This document shows, piece after piece, positions 20,449-55,110 of a stretch of DNA of 64,000 nt. Position 1 is the first letter of the stretch. The number at the start of each line of letters is the position of its first letter. Location: assembly GCF_005887635.2 (NCBI RefSeq), contig NZ_CP040818.1, positions 1,052,001-1,116,000 on the forward strand, in the 5' to 3' direction. The position numbers and the translations under genes were made by a program. This DNA is from Paroceanicella profunda. Lineage in GTDB: Bacteria > Pseudomonadota > Alphaproteobacteria > Rhodobacterales > Rhodobacteraceae. The notes under the pieces were generated by a model. It did not search any database. It was not told the DNA's origin and saw nothing but the letters and a program-made list of their open reading frames with translations.

Positions 20449-20548
20449 CGGCCGGACACGGGCCCGCGCGCGGGGGCCGAGGCAGCCCCGCGGCCCCCGG
20501 TCACAGCCTCCCCGCCCACCGCCGGTCGCCGGCCCCTCCCGGAACGCC

Positions 20549-20723
20549 GGGCATCGGGCATCGGGCATCGGGCATCGGGCATCGGGCATCGGGCATCGGG
20601 CATCGGGCATCGGGCATCGGGCATCGGGCATCGGGCATCGGGCATCGGGCATCGGGCATCGGGCATCGGGCATCGGGCATCGGGCATCGGGCATCGGGCA
20701 TCGGGCATCGGGCATCGGGCATC
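20549..20723 (+). repeat. Heptanucleotide tandem array, 25 perfect copies
   Basis: GGGCATC is repeated exactly 25 times (175 bp) with no mismatch seen. Because 7 is not a multiple of 3, all frames stay open through it, producing artificial repeating peptides on both strands. It lies 100 bp downstream of the IMPACT-domain gene and 424 bp from the convergent lysR end. Perfect copies imply recent expansion by slippage. Confidence 0.97.
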
Positions 20724-20784
20724 GAAGACCTCCCGCAGCCGCGCGGATCGCACAAGCACTTTCCCGCTCCGATCTTGGCACGAA

Positions 20785-38681: not shown

Positions 38682-38731
38682 GCCCTCGCCCGTGCCAGGC
38701 GGTGACGGAAACGCCCCGGAGCCGCAGGGCC

Positions 38732-38914
38732 GGCACCTTTCCGGACCCGGCACCTTTCCGGACCCGGCACCTTTCCGGACCCGGCACCTTTCCGGACCCG
38801 GCACCTTTCCGGACCCGGCACCTTTCCGGACCCGGCACCTTTCCGGACCCGGCACCTTTCCGGACCCGGCACCTTTCCGGACCCGGCACCTTTCCGGACC
38901 CGGCACCTTTCCGG
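38732..38914 (+). repeat. Tandem array of a 17-bp unit, 10 full copies plus a partial one
   Basis: GGCACCTTTCCGGACCC is repeated ten times without visible mismatch (38732-38901), then a 13-base partial copy (38902-38914). It lies in the gap between tctC and tctB. The last copy forms the left arm of a strong hairpin with an inverted copy immediately beyond. Confidence 0.97.
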
Positions 38915-47064: not shown

Positions 47065-47240
47065 CCCACCCGCAGCGCGGCTCTCGGCCCACCCGTAGCG
47101 CGGCTCTCGGCCCACCCGTAGCGCGGCTCTCGGCCCACCCGTAGCGCGGCTCTCGGCCCACCCGTAGCGCGGCTCTCGGCCCACCCGTAGCGCGGCTCTC
47201 GGCCCACCCGTAGCGCGGCTCTCGGCCCACCCGTAGCGCG
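47065..47240 (-). repeat. Tandem array of a 23-bp unit, seven copies plus a partial
   Basis: A 23-bp unit (beginning CCCACCCGTAGCGCGG and ending CTCTCGG) is repeated from 47065 to 47225 seven times, plus 15 bases of an eighth; only the first copy has a C for T change. It fills half of the convergent gap between gntR and the FhuB-like gene. In the minus reading it yields the artificial peptide GWAESRATGG-PRAALRVG. Confidence 0.95.
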
Positions 47241-47360: not shown

Positions 47361-49334
47361 TCAGCGGCGCAGGCGGAACGCGAGATAGGGCAGGCAGACC
47401 AGCGCGGCAGTGAGGCCGGCCGGCAGGTCGTAGGGAAAGGCCACCCAGGCGCCGAGCCCCTGCGCCACGCCCATGGCCAGCGCGCCGACGCAGACCGCCC
47501 CCGCCAGGTGCTCCGCCGCGCGGACAAGCCCGAGGCGGAGCGCCACCTGCGGCCCGATCAGCCCGACGAAACTGTAGGGACCGATGGCGAAGGTTGCCGC
47601 CACGCTCAGCCCCGCCGCCAGCAACAGCAGCACCGCGCGCGCGAGGCCCAGCCGCAGCCCGGTGGCCTGGGCCGCCTCCGCCCCCAGCGACAGCAGGTCC
47701 AGCCAGCGGGTGACCAGCGCCAGCGGCGCCAGCAGCACCAGCGCCGCGAGCCCGAGCCACAGCGCCTGCTCCGGCCGCGCGCCCCAGGTGGAGCCCGCCA
47801 CCCAGAGCATGAGCTCGATGCTGCGCGGGTCGCCGAAGGCAAGGAACAGGCTGGTGAGCCCGTCCAGCAGGAAGGTGAGCAGAACGCCGGCCAGCAGCAC
47901 GGTTTCCGGGGCGAAGCGGGTGCGCGCACCGATGCGCATCAGCACCGCCAGAACCGCCAGCGCCCCCGCCACCATGCAGCCGATCTTCAGCGCCGGCCCC
48001 GCCGTGGGGCTGAGCAGGAAGGCCGCGATCAGGCCCAGCGTCACCCCCGGGCCGATGCCGGTCATCTCCGGCGTGGCGAGCGGGTTGCGCAGCAGCCGTT
48101 GCAGCAGGGCCCCCGCGGCGGCCACCATGCCGCCGGCCAGCACCGCCAGCGCCATGCGCGGCCATGTCTCGGGAACGAAGCCGAAGGTCCAGCCCTCCGG
48201 CCCGCGCGCGACAAGGCAGGCCCCCACGGCCACGACCAGCGCCGCCGCACCGACACCGGCGATCCGGGCCACGGGCCGGGCCGCGCGCGGCTGCGCCTCG
48301 CCGCGCGGCGGCAGGGCGCGCGGGCGGTTGCGCAGCGCAAGCCACAGCAGCAGCGGCGCACCGATGAGCGCGGTGAGCGCGCCGGCCGGCGGATCGCCCG
48401 GCAACTGCCGCGTCACCTGGTCGACGACCAGCAGCAGCCCGCCGCCGGCCGCCGCCGCCCCGCACAGGCGCGGGCCGAGGCGCCGCGCCCCCGCCAGCCG
48501 CGCCACATGCGGCGCGGCGAGGGCCACGAACCCCATGGACCCGATCGCCGCCGAGGCCGTGGCGGAGAGCAGGATCGCCGCCGCGCAGGCGCCCCAACGC
48601 CAGGTTCCCGCGTTCAGCCCCGCCGCCCGCGCCGCCTGCCCGCCCAGCGCCAGCAGGCCCAGCGGCCGCACCAGCAGCGCCGAGAGCACCCCGCCCAGCG
48701 CCAGCGCCGGCAGCAGGAACAGCGTGTCGCCCCAGCCGTCCTGCGTGAGCGAGCCGGCGCCCCAGAGGAACATCGCCTGCAGGTATTCCTGGTTGAAGAT
48801 CCGCAGCGCCGCGGCGGCCGAGGCGCAGAACAGCGCCACCACCAGCCCGGCGAGGATCAGCCGCAGCGGCGAGGCCCGCTCGCCCCCCGCCATCAGCCGC
48901 ACCAGCGCGAAGCTGGCGAAGCCGCCGGCCAGCGCCCCGGCCAGCAGGGTGCCGCGCCCGGCATCGGGCAACGCCAGCAGGACAATGGACATCACCAGCC
49001 CGGCGCCCGCGTCCACCCCCAGCGTGCCGGGGGCCGCCAGCGGATTTTCCAGCGCCTGTTGCAGCAGGACACCGGCCAGCCCCAGCATCGCCCCGCCGAT
49101 CAGCGCCACCGTCACCCGCGGCAGCACCGCGTAGTGGAACACCAGCATGTCCGGCCTGTCCGCCGGCGGCGCCAGCGCGGCGCTGAGCCAGTCCGCCGGG
49201 GCGAGGTCCTGCCCCAGGCTCAGCAGGGTCACCGCCAGCGCCACCAGCCCGCCGGCGAGGGCGAGCATCAGCCCGGGCCGCGGCACCGGCCCCCTGCGCG
49301 GCAGCACGCCGCCCGCTCCCGGCGCGCCGCTCAT
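47361..49334 (-). CDS. FhuB-like fused iron-chelate ABC permease
   Basis: 657-residue membrane protein made of two consecutive FecCD/BtuC-type permease halves (about 1-330 and 331-657), the FhuB architecture. Each half has the NPLAxP...G motif (NPLAAPGTLGVDAGA, then NPLATPEMTGIGPG) and the GPYSFVGLIGPQ / GSMGFVALAAPHVAR segment. Start at 49334 overlaps the binding-protein stop (ATGA). It imports a ferric siderophore or heme with the following FhuD-like protein; the cognate ATPase (FhuC) is not in this window. Confidence 0.9.
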   Translation of the reverse strand: MSGAPGAGGVLPRRGPVPRPGLMLALAGGLVALAVTLLSLGQDLAPADWLSAALAPPADRPDMLVFHYAVLPRVTVALIGGAMLGLAGVLLQQALENPLAAPGTLGVDAGAGLVMSIVLLALPDAGRGTLLAGALAGGFASFALVRLMAGGERASPLRLILAGLVVALFCASAAAALRIFNQEYLQAMFLWGAGSLTQDGWGDTLFLLPALALGGVLSALLVRPLGLLALGGQAARAAGLNAGTWRWGACAAAILLSATASAAIGSMGFVALAAPHVARLAGARRLGPRLCGAAAAGGGLLLVVDQVTRQLPGDPPAGALTALIGAPLLLWLALRNRPRALPPRGEAQPRAARPVARIAGVGAAALVVAVGACLVARGPEGWTFGFVPETWPRMALAVLAGGMVAAAGALLQRLLRNPLATPEMTGIGPGVTLGLIAAFLLSPTAGPALKIGCMVAGALAVLAVLMRIGARTRFAPETVLLAGVLLTFLLDGLTSLFLAFGDPRSIELMLWVAGSTWGARPEQALWLGLAALVLLAPLALVTRWLDLLSLGAEAAQATGLRLGLARAVLLLLAAGLSVAATFAIGPYSFVGLIGPQVALRLGLVRAAEHLAGAVCVGALAMGVAQGLGAWVAFPYDLPAGLTAALVCLPYLAFRLRR

Positions 49335-50197
49335 GACAGCGCCTCCCCGGCCAGCTGCGCGAAGCGCATCGCCGCGGGCAGTTCCCCGTACGCCCAGACG
49401 GCGTCGATCACCCGCAGCCGGCCGGCGCGCGCGAAGGGCAGATGCGCCCAGAGCCCGTCGCCCGCCATCGCCTGCCGCGCCGTGGCCGGAACCGGCCCCA
49501 CCACCAGCACCATCGCATCCGGATAGGCGGCGAGATCCTCGACCCTGGCATTCGCGAAGCCCCAGAAGTTCACCGGGTCGCGCCAGGCGCCCTCCAGCCC
49601 GATCGCGGCGAGCACGTCGCAGTAGAGGCTGCCCTTGCCGAAGACACGCAGGTGCCGCCCATCCGCGAAGCTGATCGGCAGCACGGGGCGGGAGGCACCG
49701 TCCCCGCGGCCGCGCGCCATCCGGGCGAAGAGCGCATCCGCCTGCGCCACCAGCGCCGCCCCGGCCTCCGCACGGCCCAGCTTCGCGGCCAGCGCCACGG
49801 CATTCTCCCGGTTGGCCGCCAGCGGCGCGCCGCGCGCGTCGAAGCTGGAATAGGACAGCGGCGCGCCGATCCCCTCCATCAGGGGCAGCAGGGCCGCGAA
49901 CTGCGGCGTGGCGAGGATGTAATCGGGCTTCAGCGCCCGCACGAAGGCGAGGTTGGGCTGCAGGCGCAGGCCGATGTCGGGCACTTCCGGCGGCATGGCG
50001 GGCTCGGCCACCCAGTCCGCATAGGGGCCGAGTTCGGCCACGCCGACCGGCGTCACGCCCAGGGCCATCGAGAGCCCGGCCAAGCCCCATTCCAGCGCCA
50101 CCACGCGCGGCACCGGAGGCGCCGCCCGGCCCTGCAGCGGCGCGAGGGCCAGCGCGGCGGCGGCACCGGCCAGGAGGGAGCGTCGGGGGATCGTCAT
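49331..50197 (-). CDS. FhuD-like iron-chelate/heme periplasmic binding protein
   Basis: 288-residue cluster A binding protein of the FhuD/TroA-type fold. N-terminus IPRRSLLAGAAAALALAPLQGRAA is a twin-arginine-style signal. Domain features include VVALEWGLAGLSMALGVTPVGVAE and PDIGLRLQPNLAFVRALKPDYILA. Start ATG at 50195-50197 with GAGGA 8 bases upstream; the frame continues 42 codons upstream without support. Paired with the FhuB-like permease. Whether the ligand is a siderophore or heme cannot be told. Confidence 0.88.
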   Translation of the reverse strand: MTIPRRSLLAGAAAALALAPLQGRAAPPVPRVVALEWGLAGLSMALGVTPVGVAELGPYADWVAEPAMPPEVPDIGLRLQPNLAFVRALKPDYILATPQFAALLPLMEGIGAPLSYSSFDARGAPLAANRENAVALAAKLGRAEAGAALVAQADALFARMARGRGDGASRPVLPISFADGRHLRVFGKGSLYCDVLAAIGLEGAWRDPVNFWGFANARVEDLAAYPDAMVLVVGPVPATARQAMAGDGLWAHLPFARAGRLRVIDAVWAYGELPAAMRFAQLAGEALS

Positions 50198-50798
50198 GGC
50201 AGTGTCCTCACGGCTGAGGGGCCTCGCGGCAAAGCGCGGGGGCGGATCGTGGACAGGTCGGGAAAGGGCTGCGGGCTGGCGCACGCCCCGCGCTGGAGGC
50301 GAAGACGCGCTGGCGGTCGGCACACCCCGTGCCTAGCGGAGCGCGGATGACGGACGCAAGGGAAAACCGGTGCCTCACGCAGCGCACTCGGCACCTCGCC
50401 CCCGCGATGCCGGGCCCGCCCGGGGCCCCGCCCCTCCACGCCGAAGTGCCCGGAGGCCGGCGGTCCGTCGGGCGGAGTGGCGTCCGGCGCCTCGCCCGAA
50501 CACTCCCCCGGGCCCGGCCGGTGCACGAGCCTCCTGCCCCGCCAGCGGGCGCAGAGCGGGTCGGGCGGGCGGGCGCCCGCCCGTCCGCGCGAAGCTATCG
50601 GGGTGGTGTCTGGCGCGTCGCTCGAACGCTGCCGGCGCGCAGCCTTCTGACCCGCGAGCGGGGACAGGGTGCGGAGCGCGCCGTGGGGTGCCGCCACGCT
50701 GACCGTGAGGCCGGCGTACCCGGAGGGGCAGCGTGGAGCCGTCTTCGCGGGGGCGCAGGGTGTAGCGGAGAGGCCCGGAGGCCTCCCCGCGGCGAGGA
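50198..50798. other. Gap of 0.6 kb between the FhuD-like gene and the hemophore-like genes
   Basis: No credible gene. An imperfect repeat is present: the stretch from 50477 (GTGGCGTCCGGCGCCTCGCC) recurs in diverged form at about 50603 (GTGGTGTCTGGCGCGTCGCT), an offset of about 126 bases. The hemophore genes and the fhuBD genes are on the same strand, but this gap may separate their transcripts. Confidence 0.5.
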
Positions 50799-51746
50799 TC
50801 AGCCGAAGGTGAAATTGTCGGCGCCGAGGTCCGCCACGTCGACCCCGAGCAGCACCAGCCGGTTGCCGCTGTCGTCGTTGATCACCGTGTTGTCGCCCAC
50901 CTGCACGGCGGCGGCCTGCACGTCGGCGAAATCGTCGAACTGGCCGGCTTCGTAGGCGATCACGTCGCCCACGGCGGCGTTGAAGTCCACGATCCGGTCA
51001 TTGCCGGTGTCCGACGTATCGAAGACGAAGATGTCCACGTTGCCGCCGCCGGCCAGCCGGTCGTCGCCGGCGCCGCCGGTGATCACGTCGCGCCCGGCGC
51101 CGCCGAACAGCAGGTCGTTGCCCGCGCCGCCGTAGAGCCAGTCGCGGCCGTTGCCGCCGTAGAGCCAGTCGTCGCCGTTGTTGCCCATCAGGCGGTCGTT
51201 GCCGTCGCCGCCCGAGAGCATGTCGTCGCCGCCGCGGCCGCGCATCACGTCGGCGGTGCTGCTGCCGGTCACCACGTCGTCGCCGTAGCTGCCCCAGAGG
51301 TTGTTGCGCTCGGTGGAGAGCATCTCGCGCAGGGTGGAAGTGTTGCCGGCCGGCGCGGTGCCGTCGGACATCAGGTCATAGACCAGCCCGTGCACGTCGT
51401 CGCCGTTGTCGGAATCGAGCGGCGCGGAGAAGGCCAGCGACACGTCGGTCTGGTTCAGCGCCAGCGTGGCGCCCTGCGCGTAGCCGCCGTAGCCGAAGGA
51501 AATGGCGGAGATGGTGCCGTCCACGGTGTGGCTGGAGAAGGTGTATTCCAGGTCGCCGTCCACGTAGAAGGCCTGCTCCGAATCGTCCGGCGTTGCGGTC
51601 ACGCTTCCGGTGCTGCCCATGTAGGCGCCCGAGAAGCCGTTGCTGAACGCGCCGAAGCCCGAGAGGGTGAAGCTCGAGTCGAAGTCGGCGAAATAGCCGG
51701 CGAGGTCGATGCCGGCGTTGTTTTCAAGCGTGATGGTGATGGTCAT
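50799..51746 (-). CDS. HasA-type hemophore domain fused to RTX tail, copy B
   Basis: 315 residues, no signal peptide. N-terminal about 1-140 resembles HasA hemophores: FDSSFTLSGFGAFSN, then YVDGDLEYTFSSHTVDGTISAISFG and DDVHGLVYDLMSDGTAP. These align with the HasA loop holding the heme-ligand Tyr75 and its His83 partner (here Tyr68 and His73). Residues about 160-235 are RTX nonapeptides (GGxGxDxUx, e.g. GGAGNDLLF, GGAGDDRLA) that bind Ca2+ outside the cell, followed by a DIFVF/DRIVDF-type C-terminal domain. This implies secretion by a type I system, which is not encoded here. It follows copy A by 57 bases with a hairpin between. Confidence 0.8.
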   Translation of the reverse strand: MTITITLENNAGIDLAGYFADFDSSFTLSGFGAFSNGFSGAYMGSTGSVTATPDDSEQAFYVDGDLEYTFSSHTVDGTISAISFGYGGYAQGATLALNQTDVSLAFSAPLDSDNGDDVHGLVYDLMSDGTAPAGNTSTLREMLSTERNNLWGSYGDDVVTGSSTADVMRGRGGDDMLSGGDGNDRLMGNNGDDWLYGGNGRDWLYGGAGNDLLFGGAGRDVITGGAGDDRLAGGGNVDIFVFDTSDTGNDRIVDFNAAVGDVIAYEAGQFDDFADVQAAAVQVGDNTVINDDSGNRLVLLGVDVADLGADNFTFG

Positions 51747-51765
51747 GTGACTCTCCGGGGAGGGT

Positions 51766-51789
51766 CCGGGCGGCGGGGATGCCGCCCGG
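51766..51789 (-). other. Hairpin between the two hemophore-like genes
   Basis: CCGGGCGGC (51766-51774) and GCCGCCCGG (51781-51789) form a perfect 9-bp stem with a 6-nt loop in the 57-base gap. May set the ratio of copy A to copy B. Confidence 0.5.
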
Positions 51790-51803
51790 GGCTGCGGATC
51801 GGA

Positions 51804-52721
51804 TCAGACGAACTGGAAGTCGCCCGCCGAGAGGCTGTCGGCGTCCACGCCGGCCAGCAGGATGCCGTCGCCGTCACCGAGGTCGATGTAGGCGTTGCCG
51901 CCCTGCTCGGAGATGCTGAGATCCTCGAAGCCGGAGAAATCGGAGGCGGAGAGGCGGATGAAATCCAGACCCACGGTGAAGTCGTTGATCCGGTCCACGC
52001 CGAGGTCGGAGCCGCGGAACACGAAGGTGTCCGCGCCCTTGCCGCCGGCGAGGATGTCGTCGCCCGCGCCGCCGCGCAGCAGGTCGTTGCCGCGGCCGCC
52101 GTAAAGCTTGTCGTCGCCCGCGCCGCCGAACAGCCGGTCATTGCCGATGTTGCCGACGAGCACGTCCGCGCCCTGGCCGCCGTAGAACACGTCGCGGCCC
52201 CAGCCGCCGGTCATGTGGTCGTCTGCCGACGTGCCGTTGAAGCGGTCATTGCCGGCCGAACCGACGAGGTCGACGCCGGTGAGATCGAGCAGGGAGACGA
52301 GGGTGGAGGTGTTGCCCTCCGGCGCGGTGCCGTCGGACATCAGGTCATAGACCAGCCCGTGCACGTCATCGCCGTCGGCGGTGGCGAGGTCGGGCGTGAA
52401 GTCGATGGTGAAGTCGGTGGAGCCGAGCGACAGGTCGAAGAGGCCCGTCTCCGTGTTGAGCACCGCGTCGCCGTCGGTGCCGAAGGAGATGGTGTCGATG
52501 GTGCCGTCCACGTGGTGGTTGGAGAACTGGTAGCCCAGGTCGCCGTCCACCAGGAAGGCGAGGGCCTCGGCGTCGCCGGACGTGCCCATGTAATCGCCCG
52601 AGAAGGTCGACATGTTGGAGAAGGCGCCGAAGCCCGACAGCGAGAAGTTCGCGTCGAAATTGGCGAAATAGGCGTCGAGATCGATGCCGGTTGCGGCGAG
52701 CAGCGTGACGGTGGTCTGCAT
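51804..52721 (-). CDS. HasA-type hemophore domain fused to RTX tail, copy A
   Basis: 305 residues, no signal peptide, paralogous to copy B: the GIDLxxYFAxFDxxFxLSGFGAFSN start and the DDVHGLVYDLMSDGTAP segment are shared. The HasA-like loop reads VDGDLGYQFSNHHVDGTIDTISFG, giving Tyr64 with His69/His70 at the heme-ligand positions. No His is found where HasA His32 lies. RTX repeats (GGAGDDKLYGG, GGRGNDLLRGG, GGAGDDILAGG) occupy about 170-222 and end in a DTFVF/DRINDF domain. The GAGGGGAT ribosome site precedes ATG 52721. It lies 88 bases after the TonB-dependent receptor, consistent with one operon receptor-A-B. Confidence 0.8.
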   Translation of the reverse strand: MQTTVTLLAATGIDLDAYFANFDANFSLSGFGAFSNMSTFSGDYMGTSGDAEALAFLVDGDLGYQFSNHHVDGTIDTISFGTDGDAVLNTETGLFDLSLGSTDFTIDFTPDLATADGDDVHGLVYDLMSDGTAPEGNTSTLVSLLDLTGVDLVGSAGNDRFNGTSADDHMTGGWGRDVFYGGQGADVLVGNIGNDRLFGGAGDDKLYGGRGNDLLRGGAGDDILAGGKGADTFVFRGSDLGVDRINDFTVGLDFIRLSASDFSGFEDLSISEQGGNAYIDLGDGDGILLAGVDADSLSAGDFQFV

Positions 52722-52809
52722 GGGTATCCCCTCAGATACAGGTTCATTTCAGGAAGGTGCCCTGCTGCCGTGCGACTGCGGGTGGCCGGGGCGAAACGGG
52801 TGGTGCGGC

Positions 52810-55008
52810 TCAGAACTTCATGTGCAGCGTGAGCGAGGCGGTGCGCCCCGGCGCCGGGTAGGCCGAGCTGCCGAGCGGGTCGACATAGGCCACGTCCGTG
52901 AGATTCTCCACCGAGAGGCGCAGCGCGGCCGTCTCGGTGATCTGCCAGGAACCGTAGAGATCGAATGTGGTGAAGGCGTCGAGGTTGTAGCTCGACAGGT
53001 CGTTCTCCGACGCGGAGACATGGGTGACGCGCCCGCCCAGCTCCACCACGCGGTCGAACACCCGCACCCCGCCTTCCAGCGACCAGCGCAGGTCCGGCGG
53101 CACGACGCTGGCCTGGGTGGAACCCTCCGCCGGGCTGGTGCGGTCATCGTAGATGTAGGCGTCGTAGCGCTGCGAGATGTCGGAATCGAGCGTGGCGAGG
53201 CTGCCGCGCAGGTAGAAGCCGCCGGCGTCGTAATCCGCCGAGAGCTCCACGCCCTGGAAGCGCGAGGTGCCCTCGTAGTTCACGTAGGCGGAGTAGGACA
53301 GGTCGTCGCCGCCCGCCGGGCTGCCGTAGACCGTGGCGAGGCCGATGTAATCCGACACCCGGCGCTCGAACACCGTGGCCCCGAGGCGGAACCTGTCCTG
53401 CAGGAGGAGGTCGTGCCCCTCCCAGGTGAGGCCGCCCTCCAACGTGCGCGACAGCTCCGGGCGCAGGTTCGGGTTCGGGCCGAAATAGGCGTTGAAGCCG
53501 ATGTGCTGGCCGCCGAACACCGTTTCCATGATGGTGGGCGGGCGGTAGCCCTCGGTGTAGCGGGTGAACAGGCGCAGGCCGTCGGCGATCTCGTAGGCGA
53601 TGCCGGCGGAGGGCACGAAGCGGCCGCCGGAACTGTCCACGTCCACGTCCTGGTAGCCGCCGGTGCGGGTGCCGCCGGCATCGGTGCTGCGCACGTAGGT
53701 GCTGGCGGTGCCGCTGAGCGAATAGGCATCGTAGCGCAGGCCGGCGGAGAGGCTCCAGCGCCCGATGTCGTACTGGCCGGAGAGGAAGCCGGAGGCCACG
53801 TCGCGCTCGCCCACCGGGTTCGCGCCGGAGAACCACACGTTGTCCGGGTCGTCCGCCTGGGTGGCGGCGAGCGAGACGGTGCCGGTGCTGTCCTGGAAGG
53901 CCTCGAACCCGTAGGTGAGCGCGACATCCCCCGGCCCCGCGGCGAAGCGGCTGGTGTTGGACAGGCTGCCGCCCCAGGTGTTGAGCGCGTAGTCCACCGA
54001 GAAGGAATCGTAGCTCGGGCGCGGCGGGCGGTACTCGTCGCTGTCCAGCGTGGTGATCCACAGCCTGGCGGAGAGGTCGATCAGGTCATCGTCCGGGGCA
54101 TAGTCCCAGCTCAGCGTGCCGGTGCTGGTGCTGAGCGTCGTCTCGTCGATGTAGGCGCCCTCGCCGGTGCCGAACTCGGAGCGGTAGCCGAGGTAGCCGA
54201 TCTCCACCCGGCTGGCGGGCGACAGGTCCAGCGTGGCGCGGCCCAGCCCGGACCAGCTGTCCGAGCCGGTGAAGCTCACGTCGGAATTCGAATCGAAGGG
54301 TGTGCCGGCGGCGGTGGTGACCGAGCCGTTGCGGCCGATCTCGTAGTCGCCCGTCTCGCGGTGGCTGAGTGCGAAGACCAGCGACAGCCGCTCGTTCAGC
54401 CGGGCGGCGCCGGCGGCGAAGCCGCTGAAATCCATGCCGTTCGTGCCGGTGGTGCCGATCAGCTCGCCGGCGGTGTCACGCCCCTCCAGCAGGTCCTCGG
54501 CGCGCAGGGTGCGGAAGTTCACCGAGCCCGCCAGCGTGGCGGCGGAGCCCACGGTGGCGTTCACCGCCTTGTCCACCTCCACGGCGCGGACCATGTTCGG
54601 GTCGATGTAGACCAGCGCGGTGGAGCCGTGGCCGGACTGCTGGAAGTTCTGCCGCGCGCCGTCGATCATCATGTTCACGCGGGTCTGGTCCTGCAGGCCG
54701 CGGATGTTCACGTTCACGCCGGGGTTCTGCGGGTCCTCCGAGGCGGTGACGTTGGGCACGTCGCGCAGCAGGTCGGAGGCGGTGCGCGGCGGGGTGCGGG
54801 CGATCTGCTCGGCCGTCACCTCCTCCACCGGCGCCCCCACCGGGGCGGGCGCGGCGTTCTCCACGATGATCGGGTCGAGCGCGATCTCGCGGTCCTGCTC
54901 CTGCGCGCGGACCGCGACGCCCGGAAGGGCGGCTGCGGCAAGCAGGCAGAGCGGAAGGGCGACAGCACGGCGCTGTGCGGAAAGGCGCTGGTCGAAATGG
55001 AGGGTCAT
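52810..55008 (-). CDS. TonB-dependent heme/hemoglobin-type outer-membrane receptor
   Basis: 732-residue outer-membrane receptor: signal peptide ending AVRAQE, a TonB-box-like LDPIIVEN, a plug domain (ARTPPRTASDLLRDVPNVTAS to SVNFRT) and a beta-barrel ending in an aromatic residue (HMKF). Heme-receptor hallmarks occur in order: YRPP (FRAP-box equivalent, 488-491), His502 and NPNL (512-515). In characterised receptors the His between the two boxes contacts heme. I use ATG 55008; the frame continues to 55110 without a signal-like sequence. Together with the two hemophore-like proteins it suggests heme capture. Confidence 0.9.
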   Translation of the reverse strand: MTLHFDQRLSAQRRAVALPLCLLAAAALPGVAVRAQEQDREIALDPIIVENAAPAPVGAPVEEVTAEQIARTPPRTASDLLRDVPNVTASEDPQNPGVNVNIRGLQDQTRVNMMIDGARQNFQQSGHGSTALVYIDPNMVRAVEVDKAVNATVGSAATLAGSVNFRTLRAEDLLEGRDTAGELIGTTGTNGMDFSGFAAGAARLNERLSLVFALSHRETGDYEIGRNGSVTTAAGTPFDSNSDVSFTGSDSWSGLGRATLDLSPASRVEIGYLGYRSEFGTGEGAYIDETTLSTSTGTLSWDYAPDDDLIDLSARLWITTLDSDEYRPPRPSYDSFSVDYALNTWGGSLSNTSRFAAGPGDVALTYGFEAFQDSTGTVSLAATQADDPDNVWFSGANPVGERDVASGFLSGQYDIGRWSLSAGLRYDAYSLSGTASTYVRSTDAGGTRTGGYQDVDVDSSGGRFVPSAGIAYEIADGLRLFTRYTEGYRPPTIMETVFGGQHIGFNAYFGPNPNLRPELSRTLEGGLTWEGHDLLLQDRFRLGATVFERRVSDYIGLATVYGSPAGGDDLSYSAYVNYEGTSRFQGVELSADYDAGGFYLRGSLATLDSDISQRYDAYIYDDRTSPAEGSTQASVVPPDLRWSLEGGVRVFDRVVELGGRVTHVSASENDLSSYNLDAFTTFDLYGSWQITETAALRLSVENLTDVAYVDPLGSSAYPAPGRTASLTLHMKF

Positions 55009-55079
55009 TGGGGGCCCGGTGCGGAAAAGGAGAAAACCGATCGAGGCTTCCCCGGTGCACAGGGTGGCGGTACGACACG

Positions 55080-55110
55080 AGTAACTTACTAAATCTCTCG
55101 GAAACGTCAA
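55080..55110 (-). promoter_or_regulatory. Promoter-like region of the heme receptor gene
   Basis: On the minus strand TTGACG (complement of 55105-55110) is a good -35 box, followed about 17 bases on by an AT-rich AAGTTA region. The perfect 11-base palindrome AGTAACTTACT (55080-55090) overlaps the presumed -10 element and could be an iron-responsive operator; it is not a clear match to Fur, RirA or Irr consensus. Confidence 0.4.

What the first reader, a model, noticed from the sequence alone, without database searches (positions are those of the whole stretch)
50799..52721. Two tandem HasA-type hemophore domains joined to RTX tails
Seen: two paralogous, signal-less proteins begin with about 140 residues that match HasA hemophore features (heme-loop with Tyr, Asp-Asp-Val-His-Gly-Leu-Val-Tyr segment) and end with RTX calcium-binding nonapeptides. 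Known: classical HasA is about 190 residues, secreted by a type I system through a C-terminal signal, and has no RTX repeats. Inference: these are an RTX-hemophore architecture that folds outside the cell with Ca2+ and captures heme. Having two copies directly after a heme receptor strengthens this.
Basis: partly seen in the sequence, partly recalled or inferred. Interest (0 to 1): 0.85.

Follow-up and report, generated by a model that had tools for sequence, protein, structure and literature searches.

The report
Twin calcium-tailed heme-scavenging proteins
Two neighbouring genes encode HasA-type heme-scavenging proteins that carry a calcium-binding RTX tail, unlike the textbook HasA, and they sit beside a heme receptor, part of an apparently overlooked heme-capture system of alphaproteobacteria.

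Summary
Minus-strand genes A (51804-52721, 305 aa) and B (50799-51746, 315 aa) each join a HasA-type head (about 147 aa) to 8-9 RTX nonapeptides. Pfam's HasA model misses both full proteins, so the head was tested otherwise. A profile of 24 related heads finds only HasA in the PDB (24 of 24 hits at E<=1, best 2.6e-12). The AlphaFold model of head A (pLDDT 86) matches HasA in 33 of 33 PDB hits at E<=0.001. The only invariant columns in 52 heads are Tyr, His and Gly; Tyr and His align with HasA Tyr75 and His83. His32 is missing. The receptor upstream is HasR-like (1e-68) and the genome's only TonB-hemin match at E<=1e-30. The family sample gave 29 such genes in 16 of 394 genomes, all with RTX motifs. 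In 18 of 25 named loci a receptor homologue lies between two HasA-RTX genes. Best reading: Ca2+-folded, type-I-secreted hemophores feeding a HasR-like receptor; binding and export are inferred. New variant of a known kind.

The parts
51804..52721 (-). Gene A: HasA-type hemophore with RTX tail, 305 aa
52281..52721 (-). A, HasA-type head (residues 1-147)
   Evidence: AF2 of residues 1-152: pLDDT 86.0, pTM 0.81; Foldseek best 4jet HasA, TM 0.75 by query length
52530..52532 (-). A, Tyr64 codon: predicted heme-iron ligand (HasA Tyr75 equivalent)
   Evidence: Invariant in 24 of 24 and 52 of 52 heads
52515..52517 (-). A, His69 codon: HasA His83 equivalent
   Evidence: Invariant in 24 of 24 and 52 of 52 heads
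52020..52262 (-). A, RTX nonapeptides, 8 pattern matches (residues 154-234)
   Evidence: PF00353 6.3e-25; shuffle maximum 4
51804..52019 (-). A, C-terminal region with presumed type I secretion signal, ends SAGDFQFV
   Evidence: signal function inferred
51766..51789 (-). Hairpin between genes A and B (9-bp stem)
   Evidence: z -3.19; stem identical and loop diverged in same-genus locus L021, where z is only -1.79
50799..51746 (-). Gene B: HasA-type hemophore with RTX tail, 315 aa
51312..51746 (-). B, HasA-type head (residues 1-145)
   Evidence: phmmer against PDB: HasA 9xpi E 7.7e-6; profile A7, of which it is a member, 1.2e-9; its own fold was not modelled well
51543..51545 (-). B, Tyr68 codon: predicted heme-iron ligand
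   Evidence: Invariant
51528..51530 (-). B, His73 codon: HasA His83 equivalent
   Evidence: Invariant
51024..51293 (-). B, RTX nonapeptides, 9 pattern matches (residues 152-241)
   Evidence: PF00353 2.3e-25; mean pLDDT 74-83 for residues 171-230 in the otherwise poor single-sequence model
52810..55110 (-). HasR-like TonB-dependent heme receptor (probable start 55008)
   Evidence: TIGR01785 4.3e-126; best PDB match HasR 1e-68, 235.6 bits against at most 95 for the next heme receptors; only TIGR01785 match at E<=1e-30 in the genome

Best explanation
Genes A and B encode secreted hemophores: a HasA-type heme-binding head fused to a Ca2+-binding RTX tail. Proposed working: in the Ca2+-poor cytosol the acidic RTX tail stays unfolded and keeps the protein export-competent (the job SecB does for classical HasA). 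A type I exporter (a PrtD plus HlyD-type pair is encoded elsewhere in the genome) exports it by its uncleaved C-terminus. Outside, Ca2+ folds the RTX roll, the head folds, and heme is held by Tyr64 (A) or Tyr68 (B), backed by His69 or His73, without the His32 ligand, as in Yersinia HasA. Heme is passed to the adjacent HasR-like receptor, then to an unlinked HmuTUV-like transporter, HemS and HmuQ. Shown computationally: HasA homology and fold, invariant Tyr and His, RTX repeats, HasR-like receptor, presence of an exporter pair and heme-handling genes. Inferred: heme binding, secretion, Ca2+ dependence, delivery, SecB replacement.
For: Profile of 24 heads against the PDB: 24 of 24 sequences at E<=1 are HasA; the 8-head profile of the window's own group: 18 of 18 at E<=10. 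Model of head A: 33 of 33 matches at E<=0.001 are HasA, next match E 0.046. Profile-profile with four tail-less HasA: 97.2%, E 3.3e-11. Invariant columns are only Tyr, His, Gly in 24 and 52 heads. RTX PF00353 in 24 of 24 proteins. Receptor HasR-like. A receptor homologue between two HasA-RTX genes in 18 of 25 named loci. Exporter pair over cut-offs: PrtD 689 against 510 bits, HlyD 362 against 209. HemS over cut-off, HmuQ 157.7 against 130. RTX biology and SecB dependence of HasA: passages of PMC3034196.
Against: PF06438 itself misses A and B, and matches only 6 of 24 relatives at E<=1. His32 is absent. No exporter gene was recognised beside the pair; the only PrtD match over the cut-off lies about 1.4 Mb away. 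In 4 of 16 genomes of the family sample no receptor homologue was found in the 17-18 kb read (L024, L025, L026, L102), and the genome's own third HasA-RTX gene also stands without one (L020). The ABC genes directly downstream look FhuD/FhuB-like, not HmuTU-like. No biochemistry exists.
Confidence: 0.85

Rival explanations
1. The proteins bind heme outside the cell but not for nutrition: they buffer toxic heme or keep it at the surface as a store.
For: In 4 of 16 family genomes (L024, L025, L026, L102) and for the third own gene (L020) no receptor homologue was found in the stretch read. Mesorhizobium L091 encodes a 1725-aa form with cadherin domains, suggesting surface structures.
Against: The pair sits next to the genome's only TIGR01785 match at E<=1e-30, which is HasR-like; 18 of 25 named loci place a receptor homologue between two such genes.
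Confidence: 0.1
2. The HasA fold has been repurposed for another planar ligand or for binding the receptor or another protein, without iron-porphyrin chemistry.
For: His32 is missing; head A is only 21-26% identical to solved HasA.
Against: Tyr and His of the heme site are the only invariant side chains besides a glycine in 52 heads, and Yersinia HasA, the best fold match, binds heme by Tyr75 alone (PMC9627568 passages).
Confidence: 0.05

Closest known systems
HasA hemophores (PF06438; Serratia HasAsm, Pseudomonas HasAp, Yersinia HasAyp)
   Same: Fold, Tyr75 and His83 positions, no N-terminal signal, HasR-type receptor gene adjacent
   Different: RTX tail of 8-9 nonapeptides and another C-terminus; no His32; two copies per receptor; PF06438 does not report A and B. 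A review passage on Serratia HasA says it contains no RTX domain (PMC8277102)
RTX proteins secreted by type I systems (serralysins, lipases)
   Same: PF00353 repeats; 10 of 24 relatives also match PF08548, the serralysin C-terminus
   Different: The passenger is a HasA-type head, neither enzyme nor toxin
HasR (PDB 3csl, 5c58)
   Same: Best PDB match of the receptor, E 1e-68
   Different: The Pfam scan listed only plug and barrel families, so no HasR-type N-terminal signalling domain was detected (that domain of HasR is recalled)
HmuR direct heme uptake in Roseobacter (PMC5225302; abstract and passages seen)
   Same: Heme use in related bacteria through a TonB-dependent receptor
   Different: No occurrence of HasA, hemophore or secreted in the main text; here a hemophore step is predicted

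Membership tests
HasA hemophore family | Match to the curated model PF06438 | tested here: not met
   No hit at E<=1 for A or B; the third own gene passes at 48.5 bits against 26.3; 6 of 24 relatives match at E<=1
HasA hemophore family | Sequence homology by family profile | tested here: met
HasA hemophore family | HasA fold | tested here: met
   Head A only: AF2 pLDDT 86.0; Foldseek 33 of 33 at E<=0.001 are HasA, TM 0.67-0.76 by query length
HasA hemophore family | Tyr75 iron ligand and His83 partner | tested here: met
   Invariant in 52 of 52 heads; aligned to HasA
HasA hemophore family | His32 ligand on loop L1 | tested here: not met
   No His before the Tyr in A or B, nor in 14 of 24 heads altogether; the other 10 have one or two, and 6 of the 7 downstream-type heads share a His (HLDT) 22-24 residues before the Tyr, whose place in the fold was not tested. 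Yersinia HasA uses Tyr75 alone
HasA hemophore family | Short protein without RTX repeats, ending in LLAA-type residues | tested here: not met
   RTX present; four tail-less HasA loci (L066-L069) have no RTX motif and end in AA
HasA hemophore family | HasR-type receptor gene adjacent | tested here: met
HasA hemophore family | Heme binding and secretion | not testable with these tools
   Needs bench work
RTX type I substrates | Glycine-rich Ca2+-binding nonapeptides near the C-terminus | tested here: met
RTX type I substrates | Type I exporter in the genome | tested here: met
   PrtD and HlyD families over cut-off at C1:2543642 and neighbour; TolC not tested; substrate specificity unknown

The most novel reading that the evidence does not exclude
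These are not simply duplicated hemophores but non-equivalent partners that serve one receptor, for example a relay (one strips heme, the other docks) or a pair bridging the receptor, switched on by extracellular Ca2+. The pairing seems to have arisen at least twice: as receptor-flanking genes of two separate clades, and as a tandem duplication in the window's genus; in some Rhizobiales-type bacteria two heads are fused in one protein.
Probability: 0.25. Interest if true: 0.82.

Novelty: new variant of a known kind. Interest (0 to 1): 0.64.

Why it matters
The textbook HasA lacks RTX repeats and needs SecB to stay unfolded for export. An RTX-tailed HasA family offers a natural test of whether Ca2+-controlled folding replaces that chaperone. 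It also reveals predicted hemophores in Paracoccaceae, Roseobacteraceae and Rhizobiales-type bacteria; one study of a Roseobacter strain (PMC5225302, abstract and passages) describes direct heme uptake only. The standard Pfam scan misses the head in 18 of 24 proteins tested, so they would be labelled only as RTX or calcium-binding proteins. The hemophore-receptor-hemophore order poses a directly testable question: why one receptor is served by two hemophores.

Tried and rejected
Direct Pfam scan for HasA on the full proteins failed; replaced by family profiles, profile-profile comparison and fold. The single-sequence AF2 model of B was poor in the head (mean pLDDT 45 overall) and was used only for the RTX stretch; no good model of head B exists. 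Rejected: chance resemblance; the long plus-strand ORFs over the genes (51390-52832, 52684-55092), taken as antisense by-products of high G+C (judgement, not tested). RNA folding upstream of A (z 1.18) and downstream of B (z -1.42) gave nothing clear. I looked by eye at the DNA upstream of the receptor for iron-regulator boxes and claim none. The VIA-align library was not available. The A7 profile is not fully independent of Pfam: 2 of its 8 heads match PF06438. The downstream-gene profile A8 is weaker: best 8.5e-5; 19 of 21 hits at E<=10 are HasA, the other two unrelated at E 0.85 and 2.7.

Literature: ten searches. Several listings were capped (20 of 80, 15 of 16, 15 of 171, 8 of 40); 18, 29, 30 and 95 were listed in full (8, 4, 4, 2 papers); some found none. 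No title or abstract start shown described a HasA-RTX fusion. Read as passages found by search terms only: PMC2907700 (a filamentous haemagglutinin with a hasA-like domain), PMC8277102, PMC9627568, PMC3034196, PMC5225302. Subscription papers and preprints were not searched, so earlier description cannot be excluded.

Rows dropped: from the 25 named loci the head alignment A6 kept 50 domains that cover at least 120 profile positions and are not duplicates; shorter pieces were left out. Genome scans scored only part of their first-look candidates (for example at most 9 a genome), so the genome counts are lower bounds.

Full report
What is there. On the minus strand, a TonB-dependent receptor (52810-55110) is followed by gene A (51804-52721, 305 aa) and gene B (50799-51746, 315 aa). 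Neither A nor B begins with a recognisable signal peptide (read directly), and neither contains cysteine. Both end in RTX nonapeptides: PF00353 E 6.3e-25 and 2.3e-25, 8 and 9 pattern matches spaced by multiples of nine, against a shuffle mean of about 0.5 and a maximum of 4 in 1000 shuffles. The two heads are 60% identical.

Is the head HasA? The direct test is negative: Pfam's PF06438 is not reported at E<=1 for either full protein. Single-sequence comparison of the heads with the PDB puts HasA first, E 7.7e-6 for B and a weak 0.016 for A. A profile built from 24 heads out of 13 genomes (alignment A4) finds 24 distinct PDB sequences at E<=1, and all 24 are HasA (best 2.6e-12). The window's own group of 8 heads gives 18 of 18 HasA at E<=10 (best 1.2e-9); 2 of those 8 heads match PF06438 on their own. 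The group of 7 genes downstream of receptors gives 19 HasA of 21 at E<=10, best 8.5e-5. Profile-profile comparison with four tail-less HasA proteins gives 97.2% (E 3.3e-11) and 96.1% (E 3.3e-9). In a scan of a phylum sample, the profile of 52 RTX-type heads hit 5 of 398 genomes, all of them among the 6 of 398 genomes that PF06438 hits; three of the five carry tail-less HasA.

Fold. The AlphaFold2 model of head A (residues 1-152, 52-row alignment A6) has mean pLDDT 86.0 and pTM 0.81. Foldseek against the PDB lists 33 matches at E<=0.001; all 33 are HasA, the best being holo HasA of Yersinia pestis (E 2.1e-8, TM 0.75 by query length); the next, unrelated match has E 0.046. The single-sequence model of whole B is poor (mean pLDDT 45) except in the RTX stretch, 74-83 for residues 171-230.

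Heme site. In 24 heads the only invariant columns are a Tyr, a His and a Gly; in the alignment of 52 heads (50 from named loci plus A and B, partly the same genes) they are again the only three. They align with Tyr75, His83 and a Gly of HasA (the numbers are those of the literature). No histidine precedes the Tyr in A or B, nor in 14 of the 24 heads altogether; the other 10 have one or two, and 6 of 7 downstream-type heads share one in an HLDT motif 22-24 residues before the Tyr, whose place in the fold I did not test. In four tail-less HasA proteins a His at position 32 is invariant. Yersinia HasA binds heme by Tyr75 alone (PMC9627568, passages), so single-Tyr ligation is the natural prediction for A and B.

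Receptor and rest of the pathway. The receptor matches TIGR01785 (4.3e-126). Its best PDB match is HasR (1e-68, 235.6 bits), far ahead of the next heme receptors (at most 95 bits); the receptor of locus L030 is also closest to HasR (133 against 76 bits). It is the only TIGR01785 match at E<=1e-30 in the genome. Elsewhere the genome has a HemS gene over the family cut-off, in a cluster with ABC genes whose ATPase is best matched by a heme-transporter model (242 bits, below its 261 cut-off) and an HmuQ heme-degradation protein over cut-off (157.7 against 130); the names HmuT and HmuU are by position and by eye. A PrtD-type exporter ATPase with an HlyD-type partner, both over cut-off, lies about 1.4 Mb away. 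The genes directly downstream of B look like FhuD and FhuB and may be a separate unit.

Relatives. The same-family sample gave 16 of 394 genomes with 29 matches. Twenty-seven of these genes were read in fetched loci; the other two are A and B. All 29 have at least 4 RTX motifs, counted after the head except in L103:4890-5924 (whole ORF) and in A and B (slightly wider pattern). In 8 of the 16 genomes a receptor homologue lies between two HasA-RTX genes (L027-L033, L103); the receptors of L027-L033 were typed as TIGR01785, 6 of 7 over the cut-off and L033 3 bits under. In two genomes (the window's and its same-genus relative L021) the two genes follow the receptor in tandem. In L023 the single gene lies beside an hmu-like cluster, read by eye, with a receptor that matches TIGR01785 below its cut-off. 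In one genome (G698, L101) a receptor homologue lies about 350 bases away and was not typed. The remaining 4 of 16 (L024, L025, L026, L102) show none in the 17-18 kb read. A class sample gave 2 of 385, own and G558; the G558 protein (271 aa, beside a receptor homologue) shows only 2 RTX motifs.

Named relatives. A scan of genome contigs with the upstream-type heads found 25 loci: Pseudodonghicola, Albibacillus, Albimonas, Gemmobacter, Tropicimonas, Shimia, Methylopila, Mesorhizobium, Microvirga, Shinella, Bauldia and others. All 25 carry at least one RTX motif after the head; L094 has only one, in an ORF that ends early. In 18 of 25 a receptor homologue follows, and in all 18 a second HasA-RTX gene comes after it. 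Of the seven loci without a receptor homologue (L075, L076, L078-L081, L093), L076 ends at a contig edge. Seven ORFs hold two HasA-type heads in one protein. By contrast the four loci with tail-less HasA from other families of the phylum have no RTX motif and end in AA.

History. A tree of 70 heads puts A and B with their same-genus counterparts in a four-row clade (99/88), apart from the upstream-type and downstream-type clades of the receptor-flanking genes. The window's twin thus looks like a separate tandem duplication that predates the split from its same-genus relative, so two hemophores per receptor arose at least twice (inference). The tree is unrooted, and tail-less HasA sits among RTX-bearing heads with modest support, so gain or loss of the tail is not decided.

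Mechanism. RTX repeats are unstructured at low cytosolic calcium and keep the protein loosely folded for type I export; HasA export depends on SecB, and HasA cannot be transported once folded (PMC3034196, passages). I infer that the RTX tail takes over this anti-folding role, that the protein leaves by a PrtD-type exporter, folds outside with Ca2+, binds heme by Tyr and His, and hands it to the HasR-like receptor. Twelve of 24 proteins have Asp-Phe within the last five residues (counted by me), which resembles known metalloprotease secretion tails (recalled). A 9-bp hairpin between A and B keeps its stem but not its loop in the same-genus locus; it may set the ratio of the two products.

Novelty. 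A Chem Rev passage says that HasA contains no RTX domain (PMC8277102). Ten searches of an open-access library, some with capped listings, showed no HasA-RTX fusion (listed under Tried and rejected). I rate it a new variant of a known kind: HasA by homology and fold, but with a different export and folding module, missing His32, and a paired arrangement. Function is predicted, not demonstrated.

Noticed in passing
L020:9044-9937 (own genome C1, about 2.049 Mb): A third HasA-RTX gene of the same genome, without a receptor homologue in the 18 kb read; unlike A and B it passes the PF06438 cut-off.
   Followed up: partly
window 51766-51789: Strong hairpin between genes A and B; stem identical, loop diverged in the same-genus locus L021.
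   Followed up: partly
window 20548-20724, 38730-38914, 47065-47240: Perfect or nearly perfect tandem repeats: 7 bp x 25.3, 17 bp x 10.9, 23 bp x 7.7.
   Followed up: no
L079, L081, L091, L093, L094, L095, L096: Proteins with two HasA-type heads in one chain; L091 (Mesorhizobium) is 1725 aa with cadherin domains.
   Followed up: partly
L027, L028, L029, L030, L031, L033 (genes downstream of the receptor): Six of seven downstream-type heads share a His in an HLDT motif 22-24 residues before the invariant Tyr; it could be a second ligand or unrelated.
   Followed up: no
L110, L115, L116, L118, L119 (genome G1041): A relative of the same class has five HasA-type matches in one genome.
   Followed up: no
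L084: A metagenome-assembled genome titled Exiguobacterium profundum (Bacillota) holds an alphaproteobacterial-type HasA-RTX, receptor, HasA-RTX module; probably mislabelled or contaminated.
   Followed up: no
window 47361-50323: FhuD-like binding protein and fused FhuB-like permease directly downstream of B; I saw no ATPase gene beside them by eye, but did not test it.
   Followed up: no
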